DNA of 64,000 bases from Arthrobacter sp. CDRTa11 (GTDB lineage Bacteria; Actinomycetota; Actinomycetes; Actinomycetales; Micrococcaceae). Under the pieces are notes generated by a model. The model was not told the DNA's origin. It made no database searches and saw only the letters and a list, made by a program, of their open reading frames with translations. The stretch lies in the NCBI RefSeq assembly GCF_026427775.1, contig NZ_CP044532.1, forward strand, positions 2,480,001-2,544,000. Reading direction: 5' to 3'. Of the stretch, positions 25,805 to 43,892 are shown one piece after another (the first letter of the stretch is position 1; every line of letters starts with the position of its first letter). Position numbers and translations under genes: made by a program.

Positions 25805-27247
25805 ATGTCCGGTCTGTCGTTCATCCCCCACCTCATCGCAGGGCAGGAGCGCGCGTCGTACGACGACTCGACCCTCGACAATGTCAACCCTTGGACACGG
25901 TCGACGCAGGGAACGCTCGCCTCCGGCGGAGCCCGGGAGGCCGGGGACGCCATCGCCGCGGCAAGGTCGTCGTTCGAGAGCGGCGCCTGGTCCCGGCTTG
26001 GAGAGCGTCAGCGCGCCGCGCTCATGTACGCACTCGCCGACCGGATGGAGCTCCACGCCGAGGAGCTCGCGCAGGCCGAGACGGCCGACATAGGGCGTCC
26101 CCTGGCCGCCTCGCGAAGCTTCGACGTCCCGAGAGCGGTCGGCATGATCCGCTTCTTCGCCGATCACCACTCGCTCTCTACGAGCGATGTCTATCCGATG
26201 AGCGCCGACTTTCATGCCTTCACGGCCTACCGGCCCGCGGGCGTCGTCGTCGCGATTTCACCCTGGAACCATCCGCTCATGCTCGGCGTATGGAAGATCG
26301 CGGCCGCGCTGGCCTGGGGAAACTCTGTCGTCTGGAAGCCCGCGGAGGACAGCCCGACGTCCGCCTACCTCGTGGCGAGAATTGCGCTCGAGGCGGGGTG
26401 GCCCGCGGGGGTGCTCAACGTCGTCCAGGGCAAGGGGGCGGTGATCGGGGATGCACTCATCCACTCCTCGGAGATCGACCGCATCACCTTCACTGGATCG
26501 ACCGCCGTCGGCCGCCTCGTCGGCGCGGCCGCCGGGCAGAATCTCGTGCCTGTCACACTCGAACTCGGAGGCAAGGGTGCGACGGTCGTGCTCGACGACG
26601 CCGATCTTGACCTCGCTGCAGCTACCGCTGCCAGGGCAGTCTTCAACAACACCGGACAGGTATGCCTTGCCGGCACACGCGTGCTCGTCCAACGCTCTGT
26701 GCACGACGAGTTCCTGCGCCGCTTCGCGGAACAGGCTGCACAACTGCGCGTAGGCGACCCGCTTGACCCGTCGACGGACCTCGGCCCGCTCGCCTCCGAG
26801 AAGCAGTTCGACCGAGTTTCCCGCTATTTCGCGCTCGCGCAGTCCGAAGGCGGGACAGTGCTCGGCGGCGGGCCGGGAGAGGGCTGGACGTTCAAGCCGA
26901 CGATCGTCGCCGACGTCTCGCGCAAGGGCCGCGTCTGGCGCGAAGAGGTCTTCGGCCCGATGGCGACCGTCTCCACGTTCGACGATTTCGACCAAGGCAT
27001 CGCACTTGCCAACGACACCGACTACGGGCTGACCTGCACGCTGTTCTCCGAGTCCGCGGCACGTATCCACACCGCCGCATCCCGGCTGAGGGCGGGAACC
27101 GTGTGGGCGAACTGCTACCAGGTCCGCGATCTGCGCGCACCCATGGGAGGGCCCGGGTACTCTGGCATCGGGCGCGAGGGCGGAAACTTCAGCCGGGAGT
27201 TCTTCACCGAGCCGCAGGCCGTCTTCATCAAGACATCGCTGGACTGA
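25805..27247 (+). CDS. NAD(P)-dependent aldehyde dehydrogenase (first of cluster)
   Basis: 480 aa, classical ALDH. The cofactor site lies around SPWNHPLMLGVWKIAAALAWGN and VWKPAEDSPTSA, with FTGSTAVGR. The general base is E253 in TLELGGKG and the nucleophile C287 in NTGQVCLAG. GCAAGGAGG precedes the ATG at about 5 bp. It resembles hydroxymuconic-semialdehyde and aromatic aldehyde dehydrogenases. It lies tail to tail with two aromatic monooxygenases. In the proposed mandelate-type route it could oxidise the aromatic aldehyde released by the ThDP decarboxylase. Confidence 0.9.
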   Translation: MSGLSFIPHLIAGQERASYDDSTLDNVNPWTRSTQGTLASGGAREAGDAIAAARSSFESGAWSRLGERQRAALMYALADRMELHAEELAQAETADIGRPLAASRSFDVPRAVGMIRFFADHHSLSTSDVYPMSADFHAFTAYRPAGVVVAISPWNHPLMLGVWKIAAALAWGNSVVWKPAEDSPTSAYLVARIALEAGWPAGVLNVVQGKGAVIGDALIHSSEIDRITFTGSTAVGRLVGAAAGQNLVPVTLELGGKGATVVLDDADLDLAAATAARAVFNNTGQVCLAGTRVLVQRSVHDEFLRRFAEQAAQLRVGDPLDPSTDLGPLASEKQFDRVSRYFALAQSEGGTVLGGGPGEGWTFKPTIVADVSRKGRVWREEVFGPMATVSTFDDFDQGIALANDTDYGLTCTLFSESAARIHTAASRLRAGTVWANCYQVRDLRAPMGGPGYSGIGREGGNFSREFFTEPQAVFIKTSLD

Positions 27248-27309
27248 TGATCCAACGCCATTCACCACCGCTCATGCCGGCTCCCTCCACCCCGGGGACT
27301 GGATCGACA

Positions 27310-28479
27310 CTAATCGACGGTCAAGACGCGCTCGCGCGCCACTGCCTCCGCGTCGTAGTCGTAGAGCCAGCGGCGGAACGTCTTCGAGTTCTTGATCTCG
27401 TCGTCGCGTTGCCTCAGGTCCTCATAGCCGGAGTCGTAGCGCAGTCCGTTGTCGCGGGCGCCGCTCTGGACACGCGTGGTGCGATCAAGGCGGAGCCGCT
27501 CGTACTCACCGAGCGCCTCGGGGGCCGAACTGGCGGCCGCAGCCCCGAGGAGGACCGCCAGCGTCATCGCGTCCTCGATCGCCTGATTCGCCCCCTGGCC
27601 CAGGTGGGGGAGCATCGCATGCGCGGCATCCCCGAGGAGGGTGACTCGGTCCGTCGACCAGCGTTGGAGCGGTTCGCGATCGTACAGGCCCCACCAGAAG
27701 GTCTGCTCGACCTCCTCAAGAAGCCCCTCAACGCGGTCATCCCATCCCGCGAAGTCGGCGCGGAGTGCTTCGACGTTGCCGGGTGCCGACCAGGATTCGC
27801 GCAGACGCTCGCCGCTGGGCACGAATCCAACGTAGTTGATCAGCTCCCCTGAACGCACTGGATACGTCAGGAAGTGCTTGCCTTCGCCCATCCAGAGCTG
27901 GGCAATGCCGGGTGTCCAGGACCTGAGCCGGTCCGCGCGCACCAGCCCCCGGTAGGCGATCGAGCCCGAGGCGACGGGCTGGGTCGGCTCGGTCACGGCC
28001 GCGCGCACGACCGAGTGGATCCCGTCTGCGCCGACGACGAGATCGGCTGTCTCGGTGACGCCGCTCGCGAACTCGAGGACGACCCCTTCCTCGCCTTCCT
28101 CAAGGCCTATGAGGCGGTGCCCCGTACGCACCACCCCCTCCGGCAGGGCGGACGTGAGGACGCCGACGAAATCGGCACGATGAAGTCCCAGGGTGAAGTA
28201 CCGGCCGGAGCTGTCGGAGGTGGTCATCTCGCCGATGAGCGTCCCATCGGCGCGGTAGTAGACCGATCCGTCCCCGTAGCGCGCGGCGACGGACTCGATC
28301 GCGTCCCTGAGCCCGAGCCGTTCGTAGACCCGCAGCCCGTTCGGCGCGACCCCGATCCCGGCGCCTACCTCGCCGAGCTGCTGCGCCTGCTCGTAGACGA
28401 CCGCCTCGATGCCGGCGTTCCGAAGCGCTATCGCGGCGGTCAGGCCGCCGATGCCGCCTCCAATAATCGCGACGCGCAT
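27310..28479 (-). CDS. FAD-dependent aromatic monooxygenase, salicylate-hydroxylase type (copy 1)
   Basis: 389 aa, group A flavoprotein hydroxylase. GxGxxG motif near the N-terminus (IIGGGIGGLTAAIAL), Glu for the ADP ribose in VYEQAQQLGEVGAGI, DG motif VVGADGIHSVVR and the second FAD motif LLGDAAHAMLPHLGQGAN. This set is shared with salicylate 1-hydroxylase and 3-hydroxybenzoate 6-hydroxylase. AAGGAGACACC precedes the ATG. It is a paralog of the next gene, sharing long stretches such as GDAAH-MLPHLGQGAN. It probably hydroxylates (or oxidatively decarboxylates) a hydroxylated benzoate. Confidence 0.9.
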   Translation of the reverse strand: MRVAIIGGGIGGLTAAIALRNAGIEAVVYEQAQQLGEVGAGIGVAPNGLRVYERLGLRDAIESVAARYGDGSVYYRADGTLIGEMTTSDSSGRYFTLGLHRADFVGVLTSALPEGVVRTGHRLIGLEEGEEGVVLEFASGVTETADLVVGADGIHSVVRAAVTEPTQPVASGSIAYRGLVRADRLRSWTPGIAQLWMGEGKHFLTYPVRSGELINYVGFVPSGERLRESWSAPGNVEALRADFAGWDDRVEGLLEEVEQTFWWGLYDREPLQRWSTDRVTLLGDAAHAMLPHLGQGANQAIEDAMTLAVLLGAAAASSAPEALGEYERLRLDRTTRVQSGARDNGLRYDSGYEDLRQRDDEIKNSKTFRRWLYDYDAEAVARERVLTVD

Positions 28480-28607: not shown

Positions 28608-29789
28608 TCATCGCGGCGCCTGCAGCACTTCCGTCACCTGCTGCACGACGTCGAAGCCATAAAGTTCGCGTCGGAATTCCGCGTGAGCCCTGATTTCCGC
28701 ATCCCTCCGCTCGAGATCGCCCTCCATCGAGTCGTACCGCATGCCGTTCCGTCTCGCGCCGATCTGGACCTCCGCGACCCGCGTTCGGCGCAGCGACTCG
28801 TAGGTCTGGAGGGCGGCGGGGGCGTCCACCGGGTCGCTCGCCCCCAGAAGGAGCGAGAGCGCCATTCCATCCTCGATCGACTGATTTGCGCCCTGGCCGA
28901 GATGGGGCAGCATCGGGTGGGCGGCATCCCCGAGCAGCGTGAGCCGCCCCTTGGTCCACACCGGGATCGGGTCGCGGTCGTACAGCGACCACCGGAACGT
29001 GGACTCGACGTGTGCGAGGAGGTCCGCGATCCTTGGATCCCAGCCCTCGAACTCCTGCCGCAGCTCGTCCGGGTCGCCAGGCGCCGTCCAGGACTCTCGC
29101 ATGATGCCGCGCGCCGGCACGAAGCCGACGAAGTTGATCAGCTCGCCACGGCGCACCGGGAACGACAGGAAGTGCTTGCCTGCACCGAGCCACATCTGCC
29201 AGACGTCCGGTCGCCATCCGTCGAGGTGCTCCCGAGGGACCAGGCCTCGGTAGACGGCGGTACCGGAGAACACGGGCTTGCTCTCGGGATGGACGATGGG
29301 CCGCAGGATGGAGTGGATCCCGTCCGCACCGACCACGATGCCGGCGTCTGCCGCCTCGCCGTTCTGGAAGCTGACCCGCGCGACGTCACCGTCCTGCTCG
29401 AAACCCGTCGCGCGGTGCCCCGTGTGGAGGACCCCGGACGGCAGCCCGCGACAGAGCAGCTCGACGAGGTCCGCCCGATGCATCCCATAGGTGGCGTTCC
29501 ATCCGCTCGGATCCGCCACCTGCACTGGGGCGATCTCTCTGCCATCAAAGCGGTAGTACCGCGAGTCCTCACCGACGAGGGCGCCGACCTCCTCGACCGC
29601 GGGACCGAGACCGACCCGGATGAGGTGGCGGACGGAGTTCGGCGTGAGATACACGCCGGCCCCGACCTCGCCGAAGGCAGACGCCTGCTCGTACAGCACC
29701 ACCTCGATGCCCTGTGCGATCAACGCGTTGGCGAGGAACAGCCCTCCGACGCCACCCCCGACGATCAAAACCCGGTTGCCTGAAGTCAT
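28608..29789 (-). CDS. FAD-dependent aromatic monooxygenase, salicylate-hydroxylase type (copy 2)
   Basis: 393 aa with the same motifs as its neighbour: IVGGGVGGLFLANAL, VLYEQASAFGEVGAGV, VVGADGIHSILR, LLGDAAHPMLPHLGQGAN. By eye the two proteins agree at roughly half of positions, so they are an old tandem duplicate with possibly different substrates. The C-terminus ends around FDVVQQVTEVLQAPR. It starts 54 bp after the flavoprotein gene transcribed in the same direction. It is probably induced with the cluster for a phenolic acid intermediate. Confidence 0.9.
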   Translation of the reverse strand: MTSGNRVLIVGGGVGGLFLANALIAQGIEVVLYEQASAFGEVGAGVYLTPNSVRHLIRVGLGPAVEEVGALVGEDSRYYRFDGREIAPVQVADPSGWNATYGMHRADLVELLCRGLPSGVLHTGHRATGFEQDGDVARVSFQNGEAADAGIVVGADGIHSILRPIVHPESKPVFSGTAVYRGLVPREHLDGWRPDVWQMWLGAGKHFLSFPVRRGELINFVGFVPARGIMRESWTAPGDPDELRQEFEGWDPRIADLLAHVESTFRWSLYDRDPIPVWTKGRLTLLGDAAHPMLPHLGQGANQSIEDGMALSLLLGASDPVDAPAALQTYESLRRTRVAEVQIGARRNGMRYDSMEGDLERRDAEIRAHAEFRRELYGFDVVQQVTEVLQAPR

Positions 29790-29843: not shown

Positions 29844-31295
29844 TCATTCCACGACAGCCCGCCCGGCGACGATGCCGCTGAACACGCTGGGCCCGAAGGC
29901 TGTGCCTTCGAGCGCGGCATGACCGTTGATGTGGCCGCCGGCCATCCCCGCGACCTCGCCGGATGCGAACAGTCCGTCAATTGGCCGGCCCTCGCTGTCG
30001 AGGACCCGGCAGTCGAGGTCGGTGCGCACGCCGCCGAGGTTCTTCCGGGCCAACGGGTGCAGGCGCACCGCATAGAACGGAGCCTCGTCAAGCGGGGCGA
30101 TGCCATCGAGCGGCTTGCCGAAGGCGGGGTCCCGATGAAGGCCGGCGGCGATGGCCTTGTTCATGTCGTTGATGGCGGCCTCCAGATTCCTCCGGTCGAC
30201 GCCGATACGGGCAGCGAGCGCGGCGGCACTCGGGGCGGACTCGACATAGGGCGATGAGCGGAGGAACTCCGCCACGCGATCGCGGTTGATCTTGTTGCCG
30301 TCGAGGTAGTACGGATCGGCGAGGATCAACCCCGATGCGACGCCCGCGTCGAACACGGACCATGCCCGGCCCTCCGTCTGGGCGAGGAGCGCACCGGTCC
30401 CGCTCGCCCCGCCCCGCAGGCTCTCGTCGTGGAATCGGTTGCCCTCATCGTTGATCCAAAGTTCGCCGTCGACCCCGCGGACTGCGAGGCCGCGATCGGT
30501 TCCCGGCTTCAGGTAGTCGGGTGTCCCATACGGGTACATCCACACCGAATCAAGCTCCGTGAACTGCGCGCCGACTGCCTCCAGCATGCGAATGCCCTCA
30601 CCCTTCGCTTCCGGTCCGCCGCCGAGGAGCACGCGCTCTGCTCCGGCCGCCTGTTTGGCGTGCATCGCTACGAGCTCGGCGCTGTTATTGAAACCGCCGG
30701 TCGCCATGACGATCGCCGGCGCGGAGATCTCGACAATTCGATCGCCGTTCATGGCGATGACGGCCGTGATGCGCCCGCCGCTGCGGACGAGCTCCTGCGC
30801 ACGGTAGCCGAAGCGCCACGTGATGTTCGGCAGCGCGCGGGCATGGTGGGCGAGCAGCGACATGACGCGTTTGCCTCCTCCCTCCGGACGGTGCCATCGC
30901 GGCACGCGATTGCCCTCGTGCGGGTGGATGGAGATCCACCTGACCCCCAGCGCTGACAGGTGGTCGAAGAACACATCCCGACTGGCCAGGAGGTAACGAT
31001 GCGCCCATTCGACGTCGACCGAGTCGCCGCCCCAGGTGATCCAGTCTTCGAGCGCAAGGCCGACGGAGTCTTCGACGCCGAGCCGATCCTGGAGCGGGGA
31101 ACCTGCGATGCAGGTGCCGCCGGCCGCACCGGACGCGGTCCCGCCGAAGCTCGGCGCCGCGTCGATGACTGTCACGCGTGCACCGCGCCCTGCGGCCTCG
31201 ATCACACAGGACAGACCGGAGGCGCCGGCACCGATCAGGACGACGTCCACCTGCTGGTCGACGGCAGGTCCGTCGGGGGTGGAGAGAGCGGTCAT
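29844..31295 (-). CDS. FAD-dependent flavoprotein dehydrogenase (fumarate reductase / ketosteroid dehydrogenase superfamily)
   Basis: 483 aa. The N-terminal FAD site is VVLIGAGASGLSCVIEAAGRGARV with acidic ending VIDAAPSFGGTASGA. IVMATGGFNNSAEL is the second nucleotide motif, and the C-terminal cap region carries KNLGGVRTDLDCRVLDSEGRPIDGLFASGEVAGMAGGH, typical of fumarate-reductase and 3-ketosteroid dehydrogenase-like proteins. GGAAGG precedes ATG 31295. Possible roles are dehydrogenation of a ring or side-chain C-C bond, or a reductase. It lies between the hydroxyacid dehydrogenase and the monooxygenases on one strand. Confidence 0.82.
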   Translation of the reverse strand: MTALSTPDGPAVDQQVDVVLIGAGASGLSCVIEAAGRGARVTVIDAAPSFGGTASGAAGGTCIAGSPLQDRLGVEDSVGLALEDWITWGGDSVDVEWAHRYLLASRDVFFDHLSALGVRWISIHPHEGNRVPRWHRPEGGGKRVMSLLAHHARALPNITWRFGYRAQELVRSGGRITAVIAMNGDRIVEISAPAIVMATGGFNNSAELVAMHAKQAAGAERVLLGGGPEAKGEGIRMLEAVGAQFTELDSVWMYPYGTPDYLKPGTDRGLAVRGVDGELWINDEGNRFHDESLRGGASGTGALLAQTEGRAWSVFDAGVASGLILADPYYLDGNKINRDRVAEFLRSSPYVESAPSAAALAARIGVDRRNLEAAINDMNKAIAAGLHRDPAFGKPLDGIAPLDEAPFYAVRLHPLARKNLGGVRTDLDCRVLDSEGRPIDGLFASGEVAGMAGGHINGHAALEGTAFGPSVFSGIVAGRAVVE

Positions 31296-31343: not shown

Positions 31344-32528
31344 TCAGCTGCGCAGCCAGTCCTGGTCGAGCGCCTCGACGGATGCGCAACCGAGCAGTGC
31401 GAGGGTGTTGTCGAGCTGCTCCTTCAACAGTTCGATCACCTTCGTGACGCCGGCCTGTCCCTTCGCAGCGAGGCCGTAGATGTACGGTCGTCCGATCATG
31501 CAGATGCGGGCGCCGCGTGCGAGTGCCTTGGCGATGTCGCTGCCTCGGCGGATGCCGCCGTCCATGTACACCTCGGCCTTGCCGTCCACAGCGTCGACGA
31601 CAGCGGGCAAGACGTCGATTGTTGCGGGAAGCCCATCGAGCTGGCGCCCGCCATGGTTGGAGACCCACACCGCATCAATGCCTCGAGCGACCGCCTCGGC
31701 GGCGTCACGCTCATTCGTGATCCCCTTAACAACCATCGGGCCGTCCCAGAGCGATCGCAGCCATTCGAGGTCGTCCCAGGTCATGCCCGGATCGAACCGC
31801 TGATTGACGCGTTCCATGAATGCCATACGCTGGGTCACCGCGGCCTTGCCGCCGAAGTTCCCCATCGTGAGCCCATGCCCGAACATCTCGTCCCAGCCGA
31901 AGCGGGCGACCCACGGCAGGTGCCCGAGCATATCGCCGGTGTGCCGCCAGGTCGGGCGTGGGGGGATCGTGAAGCCGTTGTGCAGATCCCGCTCGCGCCG
32001 CGCTCCGACGGGCACGTCGACGGTGACAACGAGCGCCTTGTATCCGCTGGCCCTCGCCCGCTGGACAACGTCGCTGGTGATGCCACGGTCGCGCCAGACG
32101 TAGATTTGGAACCACTTCGGCGCATCCGGTGTCGCCTCCGCCACCTCTTCGAGGCTCCAGCAGGAGCTCGAGCTGAGGGTCGAGACGATCCCGGCGCCAG
32201 CCGCCGCCAGTGCGGCCGCTCGCTCGCCGAGCGGGTGCGCGAGCGCCGCGAGCCCGACCGGCGCGAGGGCGAGCGGCGCCGATACAGGTGTGCCGAGCAT
32301 GGTCGTCGCGAGCGTCCGGGTGGACGCGTCGGAAAGCGCGCGTGGGCGGAACATGATCGCATCGAGGGAGTGCCGGTTACGGTGCAGGGTGATTTCGCCT
32401 TCACCACCGCCATCGATGAAGTCGCTGACCGCCGCCGGCAGCCGCCGATTCGCGATCGCGCGGACGTCCTCGACGTTGACGGCGTGACTCAGCTCCAGCC
32501 CTCGGGGCGGTACGGTGCCGTTTCTCAT
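31344..32528 (-). CDS. FMN-dependent alpha-hydroxy-acid dehydrogenase/oxidase (mandelate-dehydrogenase type)
   Basis: 394 aa from ATG 32528 (GAGGGA 6 bp upstream; an in-frame GTG at 32534 is an alternative). The alpha/beta-barrel FMN family shows SAPLALAPVGLAALAHP, VSTLSSSSCWSLEEV, FQIYVWRD, LVVTVDVPVGARRERD, the active-site His-Arg motif SNHGGRQLDG, and MDGGIRRGSDIAKALA with GRPYIYG at the C-terminal FMN phosphate site. Family members oxidise lactate, glycolate or mandelate. Next to a ThDP enzyme of decarboxylase type, mandelate-like 2-hydroxyacids are the natural proposal. Confidence 0.88.
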   Translation of the reverse strand: MRNGTVPPRGLELSHAVNVEDVRAIANRRLPAAVSDFIDGGGEGEITLHRNRHSLDAIMFRPRALSDASTRTLATTMLGTPVSAPLALAPVGLAALAHPLGERAAALAAAGAGIVSTLSSSSCWSLEEVAEATPDAPKWFQIYVWRDRGITSDVVQRARASGYKALVVTVDVPVGARRERDLHNGFTIPPRPTWRHTGDMLGHLPWVARFGWDEMFGHGLTMGNFGGKAAVTQRMAFMERVNQRFDPGMTWDDLEWLRSLWDGPMVVKGITNERDAAEAVARGIDAVWVSNHGGRQLDGLPATIDVLPAVVDAVDGKAEVYMDGGIRRGSDIAKALARGARICMIGRPYIYGLAAKGQAGVTKVIELLKEQLDNTLALLGCASVEALDQDWLRS

Positions 32529-32555
32529 GGTCACTCCCTCGCTCTGGCGTTGGCC

Positions 32556-34569: not shown

Positions 34570-35982
34570 ATGAGCGCTTCGCCCACAGTTCACTCCCTGC
34601 AGGACCTAATCGACTCGAAGCCGGATCTGGTCGACTACCTGTATAACGACTCGCCCGGTGCACACTCCCGCGGCCGCGCCGACCTCACGCCGGTACGGCA
34701 GGAGTTCACGAACTGGCGGGATGAGCAGCGTTCCTGGCGCGAGACGGCAGTCCTGTTCGACCAGTCGCACCACATGCCAGAGCTCGTCGTCAAGGGCGCG
34801 GACGCCAAGCGGCTGCTCAATCATGTTGGTGTGAACAGCCTCGCGAACCTCCAGCCGGGGCGTGCGAAACAGTTCCTCGGGGTCAATGAGCGGGGACAGA
34901 TGATCGGCGACTGCATCCTCTACGCCCTCGAGGATGAGACCTACGAGCTCGTCAGCAGTATGCCGCTCCTGAACTGGCTCGAGTACCAGATCCTGACCGG
35001 CGATTGGGACGTGACCTACGAGCGTGACAACAACACCTCGGACAATCCCACCGGAAGCCGCAAGCTCTTCCGCTACCAGCTCGACGGCCCGAACGCCGGT
35101 GCGATCTTCGACGAGGTCATCGAAGGCGGTGTGCCCGACGTCGGTCCGTTCCGCACCGCCAGGGTGCGAATCGCCGGCGTCGACGTCCTCGTGCTGCGGC
35201 ACAGCATGTCTGGTCACCGGGGCTATGAGGTCTCCGGCCCGTACGAGCAGGGTGAAAGCGTCGTCCTAAAGGCGATCCTCGATGCGGGCGCCCGGCACGG
35301 GCTTCTCCAGGCCGGAGCGAAGACGTACTTCAGTGCGAGCTTCGAGGGCGGCTGGATGGCCTACCCGCTGCCTGCGGTCTACACCGGCGAGGAGCTCCGG
35401 GCGTATCGCGAATGGCTGCCCGCCGATTCGTGGGAGGGGAAGTTCCAGCTCGCCGGCAGCTTCCGCCCCGAAAGCGTGGAGGACTACTACGTCACGCCGT
35501 ATGACATGGGCTATGGGAAGCTCGTGAGCTTCGATCACGACTTCATCGGCCGCGCGGCCCTTGAGGAGATCGCGCAGCACAAGACCAGGACCAAGGTGAC
35601 GCTCATCTGGAACAGGGACGACATCCTTAAGGTCGTGGGCTCGCTCTTCGACGAGGATGAGCTGCCCTACAAGTACATCGAGCTGCCGGTCGCCGACTAC
35701 GGCAACCTCACGCACCGCGACGAGGTCTACAACCTCGATGGCGAGATGATCGGCGTCGCGACGAAGGTCGGCTACACGATCAACGTTCGGAAGCTCATCT
35801 CGGTCGCCATGATCGACCTCGACCGTGTCGCGGTCGGCGACGAGGTCGAGATCGTCTGGGGTGAGGCGAATGGCGGCTCCCGCAAGCCGCGGGTCGAGCG
35901 CCACCGTCAGGTACGGGTCCGCGCAACGGTCGAGCCCGCACCGAACCCGGCGTCGGTGAAGCTACCGAAGGCCACAGGCTGA
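34570..35982 (+). CDS. Tetrahydrofolate-dependent O-demethylase, LigM/DesA-type (GcvT fold)
   Basis: 470 aa from ATG 34570 (GAGAGGA 9 bp upstream). The protein is of the aminomethyltransferase (GcvT) superfamily and matches, from memory of LigM, in length and motifs: NWRDEQRSWRETAVLFDQSHHM near the start, EGGWMAYPLPAVYTGEEL, YREWLPADSWEGKFQLAGSF, VEDYYVTPYDMGYGKLVSFDHDFIGRAALEE, KVTLIWNRDD and EANGGSRKPRVERHRQVRVR. LigM moves the methyl group of vanillate or 3-O-methylgallate to tetrahydrofolate, giving protocatechuate or gallate. Here it opens a plus-strand operon with an aldehyde dehydrogenase and an importer. The vanillate-type substrate is inferred. Confidence 0.85.
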   Translation: MSASPTVHSLQDLIDSKPDLVDYLYNDSPGAHSRGRADLTPVRQEFTNWRDEQRSWRETAVLFDQSHHMPELVVKGADAKRLLNHVGVNSLANLQPGRAKQFLGVNERGQMIGDCILYALEDETYELVSSMPLLNWLEYQILTGDWDVTYERDNNTSDNPTGSRKLFRYQLDGPNAGAIFDEVIEGGVPDVGPFRTARVRIAGVDVLVLRHSMSGHRGYEVSGPYEQGESVVLKAILDAGARHGLLQAGAKTYFSASFEGGWMAYPLPAVYTGEELRAYREWLPADSWEGKFQLAGSFRPESVEDYYVTPYDMGYGKLVSFDHDFIGRAALEEIAQHKTRTKVTLIWNRDDILKVVGSLFDEDELPYKYIELPVADYGNLTHRDEVYNLDGEMIGVATKVGYTINVRKLISVAMIDLDRVAVGDEVEIVWGEANGGSRKPRVERHRQVRVRATVEPAPNPASVKLPKATG

Positions 35983-36033: not shown

Positions 36034-37575
36034 ATGACGACGACGGAACGCCTGCCTGCGGGGGAGGTCGAGCTCAAGCTCGCCGCGCGGCACGCCGCGG
36101 CCGCAGGGGCGCTGCCGACGCGCTACGTCGACGATCTTTTCATCGCCGGCGAGTACCGTCCGGCGAAAAGCGCCGAGCGGACCGAGCTCGTCGACCCCGC
36201 GACCGGGGACGTATGGGGAGCGGTGCCGGTGGCCGATGCGTCGGACGTTGATGCCGCGGTGGCGGCTGCGGCCCGCGCGCTTCCCGAGTGGAGCCGCCGC
36301 GGGCCATCGGAACGCGCGGAACTTCTGCTCGCGATGGCCGACGCGATCGAGCGTCGCGCCGAACCGCTCAGCATCACGAGTACGCTCGAGAACGGCTCGC
36401 CGTTGTCAGAGACAGCCCTGGCTGCAGCGAATGCGGCCGGGATCCTCCGCTACTTCGCCTCACTCGCAGACTGGCTCGCGCAACCCGATTTCCGTGGCTC
36501 GCCGAATGACCGGACCGTCGTGACGTCCGTACACCGAGATCCGATCGGTGTGTGCGCGCTGATCGCACCCTGGAACTTCCCGATCAACCTGGTCCTCATC
36601 AAGCTCGCGCCGGCGCTCCTTGCAGGATGCACTGTCGTGGTGAAGCCGGCGCCCTCTACGCCGTTGTCGGTCCGGTACATCATCGATGCCGCGACAGAGG
36701 CGGGTATCCCCGCCGGCGTCGTCAACCTGGTGACCGGCGACGCCACGGTGGGCGACCGGCTCGTCCGGCACCCGCTGGTCGACAAGGTGGGGTTCACCGG
36801 CTCGACGTCGGTGGGGCGCCAGGTCGCGGCGGCGTGTGGGGAGCTGTTGCGCCCCGTCACGCTTGAGCTTGGCGGCAAGTCGGCCGCTGTCGTGCTGCCG
36901 GACGTAGACCTCGACGTTCTCGGGAGTGCGCTGCTGCGCAGCTGCCTGCGGAACACCGGCCAGACCTGCTACAACTCGAGCCGGATCGTCGCCACCCCGG
37001 AGCGCTATGACGATGTCGTCGAGCTCGCCGCGGCGGCGGTGTCCGCCGCGGTGGTCGGGGATCCTTTCGACTCGGCCACGGTGTTCGGCCCGGTTGCGAC
37101 CGCCGCCCAGCGTGATGTCGTGCGGGGCTATGTCCGGTCAGGCATCCGAGAGGGTGCGCGTGTTGCGACCGGCGGCGACGTGGCGCCCGTCTTCGAGCGC
37201 GGCTCGTGGGTGGTTCCGACGGTGTTCGCGGACGTCGATCCCGGAATGCGCATCGCACGTGAGGAGATCTTCGGACCGGTGCTCTCCATCCTCCGCGCCG
37301 CGGACGTCGACGAGGCGGTGGCGATCGCCAATGCGACGGAATACGGCCTTGGCGGCATCGTCTTCGGCCAAGACGAGGACTACGCCTTCCAGGTCGCGCG
37401 CCGTGTCGATACGGGCAACATCGGGCTCAATTTCTTCACGTCGAATCCCGCCGCACCGCTCGCAGGCCGACACGATTCCGGGATCGGCGTGGAGTACGGC
37501 GTCGAGGGCCTCTCCCAGTACCTGACGTTACAGTCCGTGCACCGCAGGCTAGGGATCCAGGAGGCATCCATGTAA
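36034..37575 (+). CDS. Aldehyde dehydrogenase (second of cluster)
   Basis: 513 aa from ATG 36034 (GAGGAGAACAGG upstream). Motifs: APWNFPINLVLIKLAPALLAG, VVKPAPSTP, FTGSTSVGRQ, general base E278 in TLELGGKS, nucleophile C312 in NTGQTCYNSS, and EEIFGPVLSI. The N-terminal 30 residues extend beyond the typical ALDH core. It follows the demethylase by about 50 bp and precedes an ABC binding protein. It is a candidate for vanillin or other aromatic aldehyde oxidation, or for formaldehyde-related steps, which I consider less likely. Confidence 0.9.
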   Translation: MTTTERLPAGEVELKLAARHAAAAGALPTRYVDDLFIAGEYRPAKSAERTELVDPATGDVWGAVPVADASDVDAAVAAAARALPEWSRRGPSERAELLLAMADAIERRAEPLSITSTLENGSPLSETALAAANAAGILRYFASLADWLAQPDFRGSPNDRTVVTSVHRDPIGVCALIAPWNFPINLVLIKLAPALLAGCTVVVKPAPSTPLSVRYIIDAATEAGIPAGVVNLVTGDATVGDRLVRHPLVDKVGFTGSTSVGRQVAAACGELLRPVTLELGGKSAAVVLPDVDLDVLGSALLRSCLRNTGQTCYNSSRIVATPERYDDVVELAAAAVSAAVVGDPFDSATVFGPVATAAQRDVVRGYVRSGIREGARVATGGDVAPVFERGSWVVPTVFADVDPGMRIAREEIFGPVLSILRAADVDEAVAIANATEYGLGGIVFGQDEDYAFQVARRVDTGNIGLNFFTSNPAAPLAGRHDSGIGVEYGVEGLSQYLTLQSVHRRLGIQEASM

Positions 37576-38764: not shown

Positions 38765-38804
38765 CGTTCGGTCGGCTTTTGCGTCACCCGTGGCCGCCCG
38801 AACG
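38765..38804 (+). terminator. Possible hairpin between binding-protein and permease genes
   Basis: CGTTCGG (38765-38771) and CCGAACG (38798-38804) can pair over a 26-nt loop, just before the AGGAGG ribosome-binding site of the permease. Similar hairpins follow the other binding-protein genes in the window. Support is modest because the loop is large. Confidence 0.3.
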
Positions 38805-38823
38805 GCGCCTAGGAGGAACTAAA

Positions 38824-39600
38824 GTGAAGCGTCGTTCATGGCTCGTCCGGTCCCTTCCCTGGATCACGACCCTCGCCATCATCACCTTGCAGGAGATCCT
38901 CGCCCGCACGGGCGTGCTCCCCAACGTCATCCCCCCGTTCACGGAGACCGTCGCTGCAGGCTGGATGATGCTGCCGACCGACGTTTTCCTCACGGGCCTC
39001 GGGCAGATGCTCCAACAATTTGCGATCAGCCTTGCGCTTGGAATCGGCGCAGGCGTTGTGCTCGGCATTCTGATCGGCGTCGCGCCGGTGCTGAACCAGC
39101 TTTTTCGGTATGTGCTCGAGTTCCTTCGCTTCACCCCTAGCGTGGTGTACATCCCGATCCTCCTGCTCCTCATGGGAGCAAGGCCGCCGGTGGCGATCAC
39201 CCTGGCGGCGATCGGGTCCACGTGGCCGGTTCTCTACCAGACCTATTACGGAGTCGTCGGCGTATCGCCGATCCTGAAGGACACCGGACGCGTGTTCGGC
39301 CTGAGCCGCGCGCAGCAGATACGGAGCATCACCATCCCCAGCGTGTCGCCGTTCCTCGCGACCGGGATCCGGATCGCCGCGGCCCATGCGCTCATCATCG
39401 TGGTCGCGGTCCAGATCATCGCCGCCGTCCCGGGCACGGGACGTGACATCCAGAACTACGCCGAGAACGGCGTCTTTCCCCGGATGTACGCCCTCATCCT
39501 GGTAGTCGGCATCATCGGACTCATTATCAACGGGCTGCTCGAGTTGCTCGAGCGCCGTCAGTTGCACTGGCATGCATCGTACCGGGAGAAGCAGGCATGA
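38824..39600 (+). CDS. ABC transporter permease (SsuC/TauC type), first
   Basis: 258 aa from GTG 38824 (AGGAGGA just upstream; an in-frame earlier start at 38779 is rejected). About six membrane helices. The EAA loop region contains DTGRVFGLSRAQQIRSITIPSVSPFLATGIRI, the cytoplasmic ATPase-contact motif of sulfonate/nitrate-type permeases. It overlaps the next permease by 4 bp (ATGA). The short periplasmic segment PNVIPPFTETV follows helix 1, also typical. With the second permease it forms a heterodimeric channel. Confidence 0.9.
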   Translation: MKRRSWLVRSLPWITTLAIITLQEILARTGVLPNVIPPFTETVAAGWMMLPTDVFLTGLGQMLQQFAISLALGIGAGVVLGILIGVAPVLNQLFRYVLEFLRFTPSVVYIPILLLLMGARPPVAITLAAIGSTWPVLYQTYYGVVGVSPILKDTGRVFGLSRAQQIRSITIPSVSPFLATGIRIAAAHALIIVVAVQIIAAVPGTGRDIQNYAENGVFPRMYALILVVGIIGLIINGLLELLERRQLHWHASYREKQA

Positions 39601-40418
39601 CGACCACCACAGCGACCACCGAATCGACCACCACCGAAGCCACTCGACGGCGTGGGTCCCCGCGCTTCAGCGGTACGATCGTCTCGCTCATCCTTCCCGT
39701 GGTGATCCTCATCACCTGGTGGTTCGTGTCGGCGAACAGCACCTCGCCGTTCTTCCCACCCCTCCAGCTGATCCTCCAGACCTTCGTCGAGGCCTGGCTG
39801 TCGGCGCGGGTTATGTCCGATATTGTGCCGAGCCTCACGCGGCTGGTGGTCGGATTCCTGATCGCCGTCGTCGTCGGCGTCTCGCTCGGTGCGCTCCTCG
39901 GGCGGCTGCGGATCGCGGCCTACGCGCTGAACCCGGTCCTGCAGTTCTTCCGATCGCTCCCGGCGACGTCACTCATCCCCGTCGCGGTGGTGCTGTTCGG
40001 CATCGGCGACACCCCGAAGATCGTGCTGATCGCCTTTGTGAGCTCCTTCCCGATCCTGCTGAACACGATCGACGGAGTCCGGAATATCGACCCGGTGATC
40101 GAAGACGTCAGCAGGTCCTTCCGACTGACCAAGATGCAGCGCTTGCGCTGGGTCCAACTCCACGCCGCCTCGCCTCAGGTGATCTCCGGAATGCGTATCG
40201 CGTTGAGCCTCGCCTTCGTCGTCATGGTTTCGTCGGAGATGCTTGGCGCGACGAACGGCATGGGCTATGTGACCCTGCTCGCGCAGCAGGGCTTCCAGAT
40301 TACGCTCATGTGGTCCGGACTTATCCTGCTCGGACTGATCGGGCTGCTCGTCAACGGAATCTTCATTCTGGTGGAGCGCAAGCTGCTCCACTGGTATACC
40401 CAAAATCAGGAGGACTGA
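39597..40418 (+). CDS. ABC transporter permease (SsuC/TauC type), second
   Basis: 273 aa. The N-terminal 25 residues are rich in Thr/Glu (cytoplasmic), followed by six predicted membrane segments. The ATPase-contact loop is DVSRSFRLTKMQRLRWVQLHAASPQVISGMRI. The segment NSTSPFFPPLQLIL is the PPL-type periplasmic motif of this permease family. Translation is coupled upstream by ATGA overlap. The ATPase gene starts 2 bp after its stop codon. Confidence 0.9.
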   Translation: MTTTTATTESTTTEATRRRGSPRFSGTIVSLILPVVILITWWFVSANSTSPFFPPLQLILQTFVEAWLSARVMSDIVPSLTRLVVGFLIAVVVGVSLGALLGRLRIAAYALNPVLQFFRSLPATSLIPVAVVLFGIGDTPKIVLIAFVSSFPILLNTIDGVRNIDPVIEDVSRSFRLTKMQRLRWVQLHAASPQVISGMRIALSLAFVVMVSSEMLGATNGMGYVTLLAQQGFQITLMWSGLILLGLIGLLVNGIFILVERKLLHWYTQNQED

Positions 40419-40419
40419 C

Positions 40420-41244
40420 GTGCTCAGCGTAGAACGGCTGCAAAAGACCTATTCCACGGGCGGCAAGCCCCTTGAGGTGCTCCGAGACGTGAGCTTCACG
40501 GTCAAGGAGGGCGAGTTCGTCACTGTCGTGGGGCCGTCCGGAGCCGGGAAGACCACGCTGCTGCGCTGTATGGCCGGTCTCCTGCCGCCATCCGGCGGGA
40601 AGGTGACGTTGACCGACACCGGCAGGGTCATCGACTCGCCGCCGAAAGAGATTGCCTGCGTGTTCCAGGACTACAGCCGTTCGCTGATGCCCTGGTACAA
40701 GGTCAGTCGCAACGTCGCCTTGCCGCTCGCCAACACCATCAAGGACCGGGACGAGCGCCGGCAGGCTGTCGAGCAGGCGTTGCAGAGTGTCGGGCTCGAT
40801 GGTTTTGGGGACAGCTATCCGTGGCAGCTCTCCGGCGGCATGCAGCAGCGGGTGGCAATCGCCCGTGCCCTCGCCTACCGCCCCGAGTTCCTCATCATGG
40901 ACGAGCCCTTCGCCTCCGTCGACGCGCAGACCCGCGCCGACCTTGAAGACCTCATCCTCCGGGTCCGGCAGAGCGCGGGCGTCACCATCGTTCTCGTGAC
41001 CCACGACATCGATGAGGCCGTCTACCTCGCCGACCGCGTCGTCGTCGTGTCAAACCGGCCGACAGTCGTAATGGACGTGATCGACATCGATCTGCCGCAT
41101 CCGCGCAGCCAGGTCACGACGAAGGGTCTGCCACGATTCGGAGAGCTCCGCACCAAGGTGGCGAAGCTCATCACGCAAGCCAGCGCAGATGCGGCAGCAG
41201 CGCAAGCAGAGGCGGCGGCAGCGCAAGCGGAGGCGAAGGCTTGA
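40420..41244 (+). CDS. ABC transporter ATP-binding protein (SsuB/TauB type)
   Basis: 274 aa from GTG 40420 with AGGAGGA upstream. Walker A GPSGAGKTT, Q-loop CVFQDYSRSLMPW, signature LSGGMQQRVAIAR, Walker B LIMDEPFASVD and H-loop VTHDIDEAVYLADR are complete. The last 25 residues are an alanine/glutamate repeat (AAAAQAEAAAAQAEAKA) encoded by an imperfect repeat of GCGGCAGCGCAAGCGGAGGC at 41184-41241. It is not present in typical SsuB and is probably a dispensable helical tail. It ends 49 bp before the second ThDP gene. Confidence 0.92.
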   Translation: MLSVERLQKTYSTGGKPLEVLRDVSFTVKEGEFVTVVGPSGAGKTTLLRCMAGLLPPSGGKVTLTDTGRVIDSPPKEIACVFQDYSRSLMPWYKVSRNVALPLANTIKDRDERRQAVEQALQSVGLDGFGDSYPWQLSGGMQQRVAIARALAYRPEFLIMDEPFASVDAQTRADLEDLILRVRQSAGVTIVLVTHDIDEAVYLADRVVVVSNRPTVVMDVIDIDLPHPRSQVTTKGLPRFGELRTKVAKLITQASADAAAAQAEAAAAQAEAKA

Positions 41245-41293
41245 CCCGGCGGTCGACACCGGTATGTTGAAAGCGAACGCGAAGGATAGGCAG

Positions 41294-42991
41294 TTGACCA
41301 CCGAGCAGGCTCTCTCCCGAACCACTCCGCGGCCGCTCTCCGGAGCAGAGCTCCTCCTCCGGGGCCTCATCGACCGGGGCGTAGACACGATTTACATCAA
41401 TCCAGGTACCGATACCGCGCCGCTTGCCCGCGCGATCGAGATTGCACTCTCCGAGGCGCGCCCTGCTCCTCGGCTTGTCCTGTGCCCGCACGAGACGGTC
41501 GCACTCGCTGCCGCCCACGCACATTTCGCGGTGACCGGCCAGGTGTCTGCCGTCTTCGTCCACGTCGACGTCGGCACGCAGAATCTCGGCGCGATGGTGC
41601 ACAACGCGGCCCGGGCGGGGGCAGGCGTCATCATCATGGCTGGCCTCACCCCCTACGACGAGTACGGCACCGTCCATGGCGGACGCGACCACATCGTCCA
41701 CTGGATGCAGGACGCACCCGACCAAGCCGGCATCGTCCGGCAGTACGTGAAGGCCACGTTCAATCCCTCCCACGCCAGCCTCGTCCATAAGACCGTGCAG
41801 CGGGCGATCGACATCGCCGCGGCAGCCCCGTCCGGGCCGGTTTACCTGACGTTCGGGCGTGAGATGCTCATCGAGACGGCACCGGAGCCCGAGGCCCCGC
41901 GGCTGGGCTCATTGTTCAGCTCCGGCCCGAGCTCGGAGGCAACCGCGGCGAGCCTTCGGGAGATCCGGGCGAGCAAGCACCCCGTGCTCGTCACATCCCG
42001 GGTGGGGCAGGACCCCGAAGCGGTCGCACCGTTCACCCGGCTCGCGGAGCTCATCGGTGCGACCGTCATCGATCCGCTCAAGGAACGGATGAACTTCCCC
42101 CCGACGCACCCGCTCGCCGCGACCAACGTCGCGGCCGCCTGGGCGGAGGCCGACCTCGCCATAGTCCTCGATGCGCCCGTACCCTGGATCCTGGGGAAGG
42201 AAGGCCCCCGGCGGGACTGCCGGATACTCCTCATCGACACCGATCCGCTCCACGTCGCGATGCCGAACTGGGCGTTCCCGGCGGATGTACGCGTCGCCAG
42301 CTCGCCGCGCGTCTGGCTCGAGACGATAGTCGCGCGACTCGAATCGGAGGGTGCGAGGCCCGTCCCGCTCGGGCGGCCGCCTTTGGTGCCCAAACGCCCG
42401 ACCCCCGGCGCATCGCTCACGGCGGAGGACGTCCTTGCCGTTCTCGCCGACCACATCACGGCGGAGGATCGGCTCATCGAGGAGTCGACGACGTCGGCGG
42501 GCTTTGTCCGCCAGTGGCTCCCGCGGACAGTGCCGGGCACCTTGTTCCGCGCCGGCGGTGCCGGGCTCGGCTGGGCCCTCGGCGCGTTGCTCGGGACGAT
42601 GGCCGCAGAGCCGGAGCGGCCGACTTTCGTCGTCGTCGGCGATGGCTCGTTCATATTCAGTGCACCGGTTGCGGCGCTGACCGCGCTGCGGCGCGAGCGC
42701 GTCGACGGTCTCATCGTGGTACTCCAGAACGGTGGCTACGCGGCGAGCAGTCAGCCCGTCCACGACCTCTTTCCCGACGCCGAGCGGCCCCAGCCGCCAG
42801 CGACTGCCTTCCTCGCCGAGGTGGACATCGCCGGGATCGCCGCGGCGTGCGGCGCGACCGGCTTCACGGTGAGCTCCCCGGAAGATCTCGCCGATGGGAT
42901 AAAGCGCGCTGTCGCCGCCTGGAGACAGGGGGGCCTGGTGGTGCTCGCGGCAAGGATCAGTTCGCCATGGATCAAGCCAGCGGACTACTGA
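41294..42991 (+). CDS. ThDP-dependent enzyme, acetolactate-synthase large-subunit-like (second)
   Basis: 565 aa from TTG 41294, supported by AAGGA 7 bp upstream; ATG 41264 in frame is an alternative, and a start at 41189 within the ATPase gene is rejected. PYR domain with Glu in CPHETVALAAAHAHFAVTG; TVHGGRDHIVHWMQDAPDQAG is typical of a subgroup of AHAS-like enzymes. The PP domain keeps GDGSFIFSAPVAALTALRRE and QNGGY. It is only distantly related to the first ThDP enzyme. It could be a decarboxylase, lyase or carboligase; the substrate is not clear. It is co-transcribed with the importer. Confidence 0.84.
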   Translation: MTTEQALSRTTPRPLSGAELLLRGLIDRGVDTIYINPGTDTAPLARAIEIALSEARPAPRLVLCPHETVALAAAHAHFAVTGQVSAVFVHVDVGTQNLGAMVHNAARAGAGVIIMAGLTPYDEYGTVHGGRDHIVHWMQDAPDQAGIVRQYVKATFNPSHASLVHKTVQRAIDIAAAAPSGPVYLTFGREMLIETAPEPEAPRLGSLFSSGPSSEATAASLREIRASKHPVLVTSRVGQDPEAVAPFTRLAELIGATVIDPLKERMNFPPTHPLAATNVAAAWAEADLAIVLDAPVPWILGKEGPRRDCRILLIDTDPLHVAMPNWAFPADVRVASSPRVWLETIVARLESEGARPVPLGRPPLVPKRPTPGASLTAEDVLAVLADHITAEDRLIEESTTSAGFVRQWLPRTVPGTLFRAGGAGLGWALGALLGTMAAEPERPTFVVVGDGSFIFSAPVAALTALRRERVDGLIVVLQNGGYAASSQPVHDLFPDAERPQPPATAFLAEVDIAGIAAACGATGFTVSSPEDLADGIKRAVAAWRQGGLVVLAARISSPWIKPADY

Positions 42992-43094
42992 AGCGCGATC
43001 GGCTCCATCGGGAGCTGAATTACGCTGTATCCGAAAGGCACGTCCGCTTCACGGACGTGCAGGGGTTTCGCGTTCGAGTGGTTGGAGATTTTGG

Positions 43095-43892
43095 ATGAGT
43101 AGGCGACCCGAGGGCCTAGATCAACGCGACTATGTCCAGTCACTCGAGCGGGGACTCTCGGTCATCTTGGCCTTCTCTGATCACCGTCCGCGGCTGACCC
43201 TGACAGAGGTCGCCGCAGCAGCGGGACTGAGCCGTCCCACCGCACGACGCCTGCTGATCACCCTCGAGGCACTTGGCTATGTCCGCGCCAACGGGCGCGG
43301 CTACGTGCTGACGCCGCGCATCCTCACGCTCGGATACGCGTATCTGAACTCGCTCGACCTCAGGGAGATCGCGCAGCCGGTGATGGAGCAGATCGTCGCC
43401 GAGGTGCGGGAAACCTGCACCCTGGCGACACTCGACGGATCCGACATCGTCTATATAAGCCGCATCTCGATGCGGCGGATTAGCAACCTCTCGCTCGTTA
43501 TCGGCACCCGGCTCCCGGCCTACGCGAGCGCGATGGGACAGGTGATCCTCGCAGATCTGTCAGCGGAGGGCCTCCGCCACTATCTCGACACAACCGGACT
43601 TGAGGCGATCACGCCGCATACCATCACCACCCCCGAAGCACTCAAAGAGCGCCTCGCGAAGATCCGCGAGCGCGGCTGGTCGGCGGTCGACCAGGAACTC
43701 GAAACCGGGCTGCGCTCGATCGCGGCGCCGGTCCGCGGAGGCGATGGACGGGTGTTCGCCGGGCTCGGCCTGTCATCGTCCGCCCTGACGACGCGCGAGC
43801 TGCTGGAGCACCTCCCCCTGCTCCAGGACGCCGCCGCTGAGATCAGCGCCGGACTCGGCAGCGAGTTTGCGACCCGCGTAGAGCATCACTGA
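43095..43892 (+). CDS. IclR-family regulator (PcaR/PobR-like)
   Basis: 265 aa, GGAGA 6 bp before ATG 43095. N-terminal HTH near residues 12-70 (YVQSLERGLSVILAFSD, LTEVAAAAGLSRPTARRLLITLEALGYV). The effector domain contains SNLSLVIGTRLPAYASAMGQVILADLS and DQELETGLRSIAAPVRG. The opening YVQSLERGL and the DLREIAQPVMEQ segment are characteristic of aromatic-acid IclR regulators such as PcaR and PobR. It lies about 100 bp after the second ThDP gene and is the natural regulator of the whole 25.8-43.9 kb block. Confidence 0.9.
   Translation: MSRRPEGLDQRDYVQSLERGLSVILAFSDHRPRLTLTEVAAAAGLSRPTARRLLITLEALGYVRANGRGYVLTPRILTLGYAYLNSLDLREIAQPVMEQIVAEVRETCTLATLDGSDIVYISRISMRRISNLSLVIGTRLPAYASAMGQVILADLSAEGLRHYLDTTGLEAITPHTITTPEALKERLAKIRERGWSAVDQELETGLRSIAAPVRGGDGRVFAGLGLSSSALTTRELLEHLPLLQDAAAEISAGLGSEFATRVEHH

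What the first reader, a model, noticed from the sequence alone, without database searches (positions are those of the whole stretch)
25805..43892. Mandelate-type pathway fused to a LigM-type O-demethylase: a candidate vanillylmandelate (methoxy-mandelate) degradation island
One block holds all the parts of a mandelate-like route: FMN 2-hydroxyacid dehydrogenase (31344), ThDP decarboxylase-like enzyme (32556), two aldehyde dehydrogenases (25805, 36034). A tetrahydrofolate-dependent demethylase (34570) follows, with LigM motifs FDQSHHM, YREWLPADS and FDHDFIGR. In the known mandelate pathway these enzymes give an arylglyoxylate, an aldehyde and a benzoate. Adding LigM suggests a 3-methoxy-4-hydroxymandelate input and protocatechuate output, with the two FAD hydroxylases, flavoprotein, second ThDP enzyme and importer as extra steps. 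Such a combined cluster is not familiar to me. The substrate is inference; the families are clear from sequence.
Basis: partly seen in the sequence, partly recalled or inferred. Interest (0 to 1): 0.78.

Follow-up and report, generated by a model that had tools for sequence, protein, structure and literature searches.

The report
Island for methoxylated aromatic acid breakdown

Summary
The named gene families are present and the block is a real unit. A Naasia MAG has 12 of its genes in the same order at 74-89% identity; Pseudoclavibacter and Microbacterium carry rearranged versions. Ten genes recur in 4 of 4 genomes: demethylase, FMO1, flavoprotein, FMN hydroxyacid dehydrogenase, ThDP enzyme TPP1, four importer genes, IclR. 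FMO2 is in 3; TPP2 and ALDH1 in 2 each; ALDH2 in 1.

The demethylase fails both curated cut-offs (LigM 469/580, DesA 494/800), sits in a separate clade and lacks LigM Arg122; the same genome has two true LigMs elsewhere. Signature residues resemble dicamba demethylase Dmt06, which yields a salicylate and rejects vanillate and syringate (PMC9404685). Both FAD enzymes belong to the salicylate-hydroxylase family. The 32556 enzyme is acetohydroxyacid-synthase-like; the decarboxylase-like one is TPP2 at 41264.

Best reading: a rare, horizontally moved island (67% versus 62% GC) that shortens a 2-hydroxyacid side chain, removes a methyl group (perhaps ortho to a carboxylate) and hydroxylates the ring. 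Substrate unknown.

The parts
25805..27247 (+). ALDH1, aldehyde dehydrogenase; also beside the demethylase in Pseudoclavibacter (68.5%)
   Evidence: PF00171 516 bits; nearest NCBIfam models HpaE 434, hydroxymuconic semialdehyde DH 417, none over cut-off
27310..28479 (-). FMO1, FAD aromatic hydroxylase, salicylate hydroxylase/TrlE family; Arg/His/Tyr triad of TrlE type; in 4 of 4 islands
   Evidence: triad residues from PMC11110157 (passages)
28608..29789 (-). FMO2, paralogue of FMO1 (51% Naasia FMO2 to window FMO1); Arg/His/Phe as in salicylate hydroxylase; in 3 of 4 islands
29844..31295 (-). FAD_binding_2 flavoprotein, flavocytochrome c/ketosteroid dehydrogenase-like; lacks the fumarate reductase His504 and Arg544 equivalents by the printed alignment; in 4 of 4 islands; role unknown
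31344..32534 (-). HADH, FMN 2-hydroxyacid dehydrogenase (database start at the ATG two codons in, 394 aa); in 4 of 4 islands, only 45-46% identical in Pseudoclavibacter
   Evidence: PF01070 447 bits
32556..34244 (-). TPP1, ThDP enzyme nearest to acetohydroxyacid synthase and hydroxy-keto-acid synthase BbmA; in 4 of 4 islands
34245..34569 (.). Divergent promoter region: TTGACA-type -35 box shared with Naasia, and a degenerate copy (34410-34434) of an inverted repeat CTATACGGAC-N5-GTCCGGATAG found before the demethylase in three relatives
   Evidence: motif chosen after the fact
34570..35982 (+). Tetrahydrofolate-type O-demethylase of the GcvT/LigM/DesA superfamily, third clade (not LigM, not DesA)
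36034..37575 (+). ALDH2, aldehyde dehydrogenase, only in the window's copy among 4
   Evidence: PF00171 500 bits
37740..38735 (+). Periplasmic-type binding lipoprotein (NMT1/THI5 family) of the importer
   Evidence: 4 of 4 islands
38779..39600 (+). Importer permease 1
   Evidence: 4 of 4 islands
39597..40418 (+). Importer permease 2
   Evidence: 4 of 4 islands
40420..41244 (+). Importer ATPase
   Evidence: 4 of 4 islands
41264..42991 (+). TPP2, ThDP enzyme with the benzoylformate decarboxylase Glu and two catalytic His aligned; over the cut-off of PRK08327 (465/456); in 2 of 4 islands
43095..43892 (+). IclR regulator, just over the cut-off of the PcaR/PcaU/PobR subfamily (286.5/284.75); in 4 of 4 islands

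Best explanation
The block is a horizontally moved catabolic island for one small methoxylated aromatic acid. Inferred order of work: the NMT1-type importer brings the acid in; the FMN dehydrogenase oxidises a 2-hydroxyacid side chain to a 2-oxoacid; a ThDP enzyme (TPP2 where present, otherwise TPP1) removes CO2; an aldehyde dehydrogenase (ALDH1/ALDH2, or one encoded elsewhere) makes the ring acid; the third-clade demethylase moves the O-methyl group to tetrahydrofolate, most likely freeing a hydroxyl ortho to the carboxylate as the dicamba demethylases do; FMO1 and FMO2 hydroxylate that salicylate-like ring, one probably with loss of CO2; ring opening is left to enzymes encoded elsewhere (hydroxyquinol-type or protocatechuate dioxygenases); the IclR protein switches the block on. 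Shown here: the gene families, conservation as a unit, linkage of demethylase with TPP1 and HADH, failure of LigM/DesA membership, catalytic residues kept. Inferred: every reaction, the order, the ortho position and the substrate.
For: Same 12-gene order in Naasia; rearranged sets in Pseudoclavibacter and Microbacterium; contig-length linkage 15 of 18 against 0 of 44. Demethylase: LigM Tyr247, His60, Gln57, Met61 and Trp256 kept in 117 of 117 relatives, Arg122 replaced by Ser or Gly in 117 of 117. Residues C and S at two signature columns in 121 and 124 of 126 third-clade rows, against G/A/S and W/F in 8 LigM/DesA-type rows; the published dmt06 primers encode VVGDCIVY and VELSGPY, the third-clade state; Dmt06 makes 3,6-dichlorosalicylate and does not act on vanillate or syringate (PMC9404685). 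FMO1/FMO2 are salicylate-hydroxylase/TrlE relatives with the substrate-site Arg and His kept. TPP2 has the benzoylformate decarboxylase His pair. The regulator is of PcaR/PobR type. The host has PcaGH and three intradiol dioxygenase plus maleylacetate reductase pairs; rhizobial third-clade demethylases sit beside such pairs.
Against: No substrate or product is known. Overall identity of the Dmt06 primer peptides does not separate the clades (13-22 of 30 in third-clade rows, 13-18 in LigM/DesA-type rows), and no full Dmt sequence was available, so its place was not tested by a tree. The flavoprotein has no role in this scheme. TPP2 is missing genome-wide in Pseudoclavibacter (best 28%) and no ALDH1/ALDH2 orthologue lies in the stretches fetched from Naasia and Microbacterium, so the decarboxylase-ALDH steps are not core. 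HADH in Pseudoclavibacter is only 45-46% identical, little above its paralogues at 40-44%. Pseudoclavibacter has intradiol dioxygenase matches at one place only, so a hydroxyquinol exit is not open to it. No ring-cleaving gene was found among the block's scanned proteins.
Confidence: 0.5

Rival explanations
1. One reading: a vanillylmandelate (3-methoxy-4-hydroxymandelate) pathway with vanillin and vanillate as intermediates and protocatechuate as product.
For: HADH, a decarboxylase-like ThDP enzyme and ALDHs are side by side; IclR of the PcaR/PobR subfamily; the host has PcaGH to use protocatechuate.
Against: Demethylase is outside LigM and DesA; true LigMs exist elsewhere in the host and in Pseudoclavibacter, 13 kb or less from the island gene; two salicylate-type hydroxylases would be superfluous; TPP2 and ALDHs are not core.
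Confidence: 0.07
2. A ring-dismantling route without a ring-cleaving dioxygenase: FMO1/FMO2 dearomatise or hydroxylate the ring, the flavoprotein reduces or dehydrogenates a ring bond, and TPP1 cleaves a 1,2-dicarbonyl or acyloin bond, as cyclohexane-1,2-dione hydrolase does; HADH acts on the fragment.
Confidence: 0.13
3. The methyl donor is not a benzenoid methyl ether but a methylated heteroaromatic or alkaloid-type acid, with NicC-like hydroxylation of a heteroaromatic ring.
For: FMO1/FMO2 also match 6-hydroxynicotinate 3-monooxygenase (181-182 bits) and FMO1 has its type of active site (PMC11110157 passages); members of the wider superfamily act on alkaloids and lignans (BrdA, SesA; PMC5547118).
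Against: FMO scores are higher for TrlE and salicylate hydroxylase; PMC5547118 gives BrdA 26.7% identity to LigM and DesA, a different branch from this one (45-47% to LigM-type rows); no heterocycle-specific gene was seen.
Confidence: 0.12
4. A phenyllactate- or arylpyruvate-type route: HADH acts on an aryl-lactate and the ThDP enzyme makes an arylacetaldehyde.
For: ALDH1 scores highest with HpaE and phenylacetaldehyde dehydrogenase models (434, 409 bits).
Against: None of those models reaches its cut-off; ALDH1 is not in all islands; no phenylacetate pathway gene was found among the block proteins scanned.
Confidence: 0.1

Closest known systems
Dicamba demethylases Dmt50/Dmt06 (THF-dependent)
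   Same: GcvT/LigM superfamily; Dmt06 primer peptides show the third-clade residues GDC...Y and SGPY; methyl goes to THF (PMC9404685).
   Different: Their substrate is a chlorinated herbicide and the natural one is unknown; identity of the window protein to them could not be measured; the paper passages I saw describe no HADH/ThDP/FMO island.
LigM and DesA (vanillate/3-O-methylgallate and syringate O-demethylases of SYK-6)
   Same: Same fold family, catalytic Tyr247 and neighbours kept.
   Different: Below both curated cut-offs, separate clade, Arg122 lost.
Mandelate pathway mdlABCD and the bzf cluster of Pseudomonas LLC-1
   Same: 2-hydroxyacid dehydrogenase, benzoylformate-decarboxylase-like enzyme and ALDH logic; 4-hydroxybenzoylformate decarboxylases of RHA1 and Pf-5 act on aryl C2 lignin fragments (as cited in PMC7760541 passages).
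   Different: No racemase found; TPP2 scores 143 against a cut-off of 493 for benzoylformate decarboxylase; TPP1 is of another ThDP branch; ring demethylase and two FAD hydroxylases added.
TrlE and salicylate hydroxylases (group A flavin monooxygenases)
   Same: Best solved relatives of FMO1/FMO2 (251-260 bits TrlE, about 200 salicylate hydroxylase); substrate-site Arg and His kept.
   Different: Substrate unknown; no tropolone biosynthesis genes were noted in the island.
ThDP-dependent HKA synthase BbmA and acetohydroxyacid synthases
   Different: About 25-27% identity; TPP1 family has a GDC motif and His or Gln before GPG in nearly all members aligned; reaction unknown.
Rhizobial plasmid clusters with third-clade demethylases
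   Same: Third-clade demethylase at 53-55% identity, import system.
   Different: Branched-chain-type importer, methyl-THF recycling genes, intradiol dioxygenase and maleylacetate reductase in several; no FMN dehydrogenase listed; a TPP1-like gene (32%) only near the Bosea copies.

Membership tests
LigM vanillate/3-O-methylgallate O-demethylase | Score over the NCBIfam equivalog cut-off (580 bits) | tested here: not met
   469 bits for the window protein; controls in the same genome 910 and 856 bits
LigM vanillate/3-O-methylgallate O-demethylase | Catalytic Tyr247 (role recalled from the LigM structure papers) | tested here: met
   Tyr in the window and in 117 of 117 listed relatives over 440 aa
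LigM vanillate/3-O-methylgallate O-demethylase | Arg122 in the substrate site (role recalled) | tested here: not met
   Ser in the window; Ser or Gly in 117 of 117; Arg in 6 of 6 LigM-type rows; His/Leu in 2 DesA-like rows, so loss of Arg122 alone does not exclude a carboxylate substrate
DesA syringate O-demethylase | Score over the NCBIfam equivalog cut-off (800 bits) | tested here: not met
   494 bits; own-genome DesA-like paralogues also fail (545, 527)
Dicamba demethylase (Dmt50/Dmt06) group | Same clade in a tree | not testable with these tools
Dicamba demethylase (Dmt50/Dmt06) group | Shares the residues that separate the third clade from LigM/DesA | tested here: met
   GDC...Y and SGPY in primer-encoded Dmt06 peptides and in the window; overall peptide identity 17 of 30 is not decisive
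Mandelate pathway (mdl) | Mandelate racemase gene | tested here: not met
   No such family among the 14 block proteins and flanking proteins scanned with Pfam
Mandelate pathway (mdl) | (S)-mandelate dehydrogenase-type FMN enzyme | tested here: inconclusive
   FMN_dh family certain; glycolate oxidase 282, mandelate DH 260, 4-hydroxymandelate oxidase 223 bits
Mandelate pathway (mdl) | Benzoylformate decarboxylase over the curated cut-off (NF005485, 493 bits) | tested here: not met
   TPP2 143 bits; TPP1 not listed for that model among its best 25
Benzoylformate decarboxylase-like chemistry | Catalytic Glu47, His70 and His281 equivalents (numbering recalled) | tested here: met
   TPP2 aligned to 4q9d and 6a50 keeps all three
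Salicylate hydroxylase/TrlE family | Substrate-site Arg and His with Tyr (TrlE type) or Phe (SalH type) | tested here: met
   FMO1 R/H/Y in 4 of 4, FMO2 R/H/F in 3 of 3
Salicylate 1-monooxygenase equivalog (TIGR03219) | Score over the cut-off (446 bits) | tested here: not met
   238 and 232 bits
PcaR/PcaU/PobR regulators (TIGR02431) | Score over the subfamily cut-off | tested here: met
   286.5 against 284.75, a narrow pass
bxd benzoxazinoid cluster | Lactonase BxdA as first gene | tested here: not met
   No lactonase family among the block proteins scanned; cluster content from PMC11297187 passages

The most novel reading that the evidence does not exclude
The island is the natural home of a dicamba-demethylase-type enzyme: a mobile actinobacterial pathway for a plant- or soil-derived ortho-methoxyaryl 2-hydroxyacid, in which a ring is taken apart by demethylation, two successive flavin hydroxylations and an acetohydroxyacid-synthase-like ThDP enzyme, with no ring-cleaving dioxygenase of its own. 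It would show what these herbicide-degrading demethylases did before the herbicide.
Probability: 0.18. Interest if true: 0.7.

Novelty: new variant of a known kind. Interest (0 to 1): 0.47.

Why it matters
THF-type aryl demethylases are central to lignin use and to dicamba tolerance, yet PMC9404685 (passages) leaves the natural role of the dicamba type open. This island gives one third-clade demethylase a fixed set of partners (importer, FMN dehydrogenase, ThDP enzyme, salicylate-type hydroxylases, regulator) in four genera, so its substrate can be found by induction and knock-out. It also shows that a LigM-like motif match should not be read as vanillate demethylation: the same genome has true LigMs elsewhere.

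Tried and rejected

Literature statement: that such a combined island is not described rests in one open-licence library only.

Correction to my notebook: entry 5 gives 17-22 of 30 for Dmt06 peptides in third-clade rows; the call shows 13-22. The first linkage count used unequal contig thresholds and missed rows; one search replaces it (0 of 44).


Full report
What is there. The block 25805-43892 holds fourteen genes. Left of centre on the minus strand are FMO1, FMO2, a flavoprotein, HADH and TPP1; on the plus strand are the demethylase, ALDH2, a four-gene NMT1-type importer, TPP2 and an IclR regulator, with ALDH1 at the left edge. GC is 66.6% against 61.7% and 62.3% outside. The AAA gene just left of it is kept in 4 of 5 relatives, but DNA homology stops at both ends of that gene in all four, so this is a variable place in the genome. 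The host is probably an Arthrobacter or close kin (inferred: TPP1 is 94% identical in Arthrobacter sp. D1-29).

It is a unit. A Naasia MAG carries twelve of the genes in the same order at 74-89% identity, without the two ALDHs. Genome G1085, whose demethylase is identical in the tree to a Pseudoclavibacter endophyticus protein, has ALDH1, demethylase, FMO2, FMO1, importer, TPP1, flavoprotein, HADH and IclR within one stretch, in another order. Genome G1309, matching Microbacterium immunditiarum in the same way, has FMO1, flavoprotein, IclR, importer, demethylase, TPP1 and HADH, plus an Amidohydro_2 gene. Ten genes are thus in 4 of 4 islands; FMO2 in 3, TPP2 in 2, ALDH1 in 2, ALDH2 in 1. For Naasia and Microbacterium the absences refer to the fetched 40 and 50 kb; only TPP2 and HADH were sought genome-wide, and in three genomes. 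HADH (45-46%) and the flavoprotein (44%) are the least similar parts in Pseudoclavibacter. In the protein database, 15 of 18 demethylase relatives at 69% identity or more, on contigs of 6 kb or more, share a contig length with a TPP1 or HADH relative, and 0 of 44 less similar ones do. The proxy undercounts: the Microbacterium HADH (78%) is not in the listed HADH hits.

It is rare. With strict limits the demethylase was found in 2 of 199 relatives (one only 55% identical), 1 of 394 genomes of the class, 1 of 396 of the order, 2 of 398 of the family of G198 and 1 of 366 of the genus of G198; the sets overlap and include the own genome where it belongs.

The demethylase is not LigM. It scores 469 bits with the LigM model (cut-off 580) and 494 with DesA (cut-off 800). 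The same genome has two proteins at 910 and 856 bits for LigM and two DesA-like ones near 5.04-5.06 Mb, among genes of a gallate-type pathway including a 4-oxalomesaconate tautomerase. Pseudoclavibacter also has two LigM equivalogs close by (902 and 709 bits). A quick maximum-likelihood tree of 45 rows splits LigM plus DesA-like rows from a third clade of 37 rows with SH-aLRT 100 (midpoint root, no bootstrap). All 117 listed relatives over 440 residues (two shorter ones dropped) keep LigM Tyr247, His60, Gln57, Met61 and Trp256, and all replace Arg122 by Ser or Gly. The roles of Tyr247 and Arg122 are recalled, not read here. DesA-like rows have His or Leu there, so the change does not by itself exclude a carboxylate substrate.

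A lead to the dicamba demethylases. Dmt06 is a 473-residue THF-dependent enzyme that turns dicamba into 3,6-dichlorosalicylate and does not demethylate vanillate or syringate; relatives at about 70-98% are reported in rhizobia and Microbacterium (PMC9404685, passages and section 6). Its published primers encode VVGDCIVY and VELSGPY. At the two diagnostic columns the third clade has Cys in 121 and Ser in 124 of 126 rows, while eight LigM/DesA-type rows have Gly, Ala or Ser and Trp or Phe. Overall identity over 30 primer-encoded residues does not separate the groups (13-22 against 13-18). So the link is good but not proven.

Partners. FMO1 and FMO2 have TrlE as best solved relative and salicylate hydroxylase next. 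FMO1 has the Arg/His/Tyr set described for TrlE, 3HB6H, NicC and TropB; FMO2 has Phe in place of Tyr, as salicylate hydroxylase does (PMC11110157 passages). Neither passes the salicylate monooxygenase cut-off. TPP1 is closest to acetolactate synthase models and to the HKA synthase BbmA by sequence and fold; fold matches are nearly tied across ThDP lyases, oxidases and decarboxylases. TPP2 aligns with benzoylformate decarboxylase with its Glu and both His in place. HADH is a general member of the FMN 2-hydroxyacid family. The flavoprotein is of the flavocytochrome c/ketosteroid dehydrogenase type and does not keep the fumarate-site residues by the printed alignment. Remote TPP1 relatives (32-34%) sit beside a putative cyclase in Rhodococcus R138 and in a Deinococcus, with an ABC importer in the former, and 4 kb from a third-clade demethylase on a Bosea plasmid.

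Outlets. The host has PcaGH over cut-off, a class III extradiol enzyme over a subfamily cut-off and three intradiol dioxygenase genes each near a maleylacetate reductase homologue. Several rhizobial third-clade demethylases lie beside an intradiol dioxygenase and maleylacetate reductase. Pseudoclavibacter has intradiol matches at one place only, two adjacent genes that look like PcaGH by arrangement. The exit may therefore differ between hosts.

Conclusion. The specific vanillylmandelate-to-protocatechuate proposal is not supported. The best-supported reading is an island for an unidentified methoxylated aromatic acid with a third-clade demethylase that may work ortho to a carboxylate. Every reaction step remains inferred.

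Noticed in passing
G000 C1 5.030-5.070 Mb (L011, L012): Syringyl/guaiacyl-type cluster of the host: two LigM equivalogs, two DesA-like paralogues, 4-oxalomesaconate tautomerase, RraA-like aldolase, a PurU-like formyltransferase.
   Followed up: partly
window 24487-25521: AAA ATPase gene 84-95% identical at DNA level in 4 of 5 relatives searched, with homology ending at both gene ends: a variable chromosomal site.
   Followed up: partly
window 44148-63978: Three sulfatase-type genes (44148 and 53927 confirmed by Pfam, 55448 by eye), a GH3 enzyme and two near-copies of an oligopeptide-type ABC importer (46554-51755 and 59612-63978): a possible sulfated-glycan region.
   Followed up: no
window 982-4409: Aldehyde dehydrogenase and fumarylacetoacetate hydrolase family genes near the left edge, perhaps the end of another aromatic pathway.
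   Followed up: no
L028 8492-15638 (Bosea vaviloviae plasmid): Third-clade demethylase and a TPP1-like ThDP gene 4 kb apart with a TRAP transporter between them.
   Followed up: no
L026 8047-8988 (Microbacterium): Amidohydro_2 gene between importer and demethylase in the island that lacks FMO2; possibly a non-oxidative decarboxylase in its place.
   Followed up: no
window 34410-34434; L001 9853-9877; L026 10516-10540; L021 19394-19418: Inverted repeat CTATACGGAC-N5-GTCCGGATAG before the demethylase gene, 6, 2, 3 and 5 mismatches; a candidate operator, chosen after the fact.
   Followed up: partly
G000 C1 about 0.09, 0.11 and 2.76 Mb (L047, L046, L048): Three intradiol dioxygenase plus maleylacetate reductase pairs in one genome; the 2.76 Mb one also has an amidohydrolase-like and an FAD monooxygenase-like gene.
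   Followed up: partly
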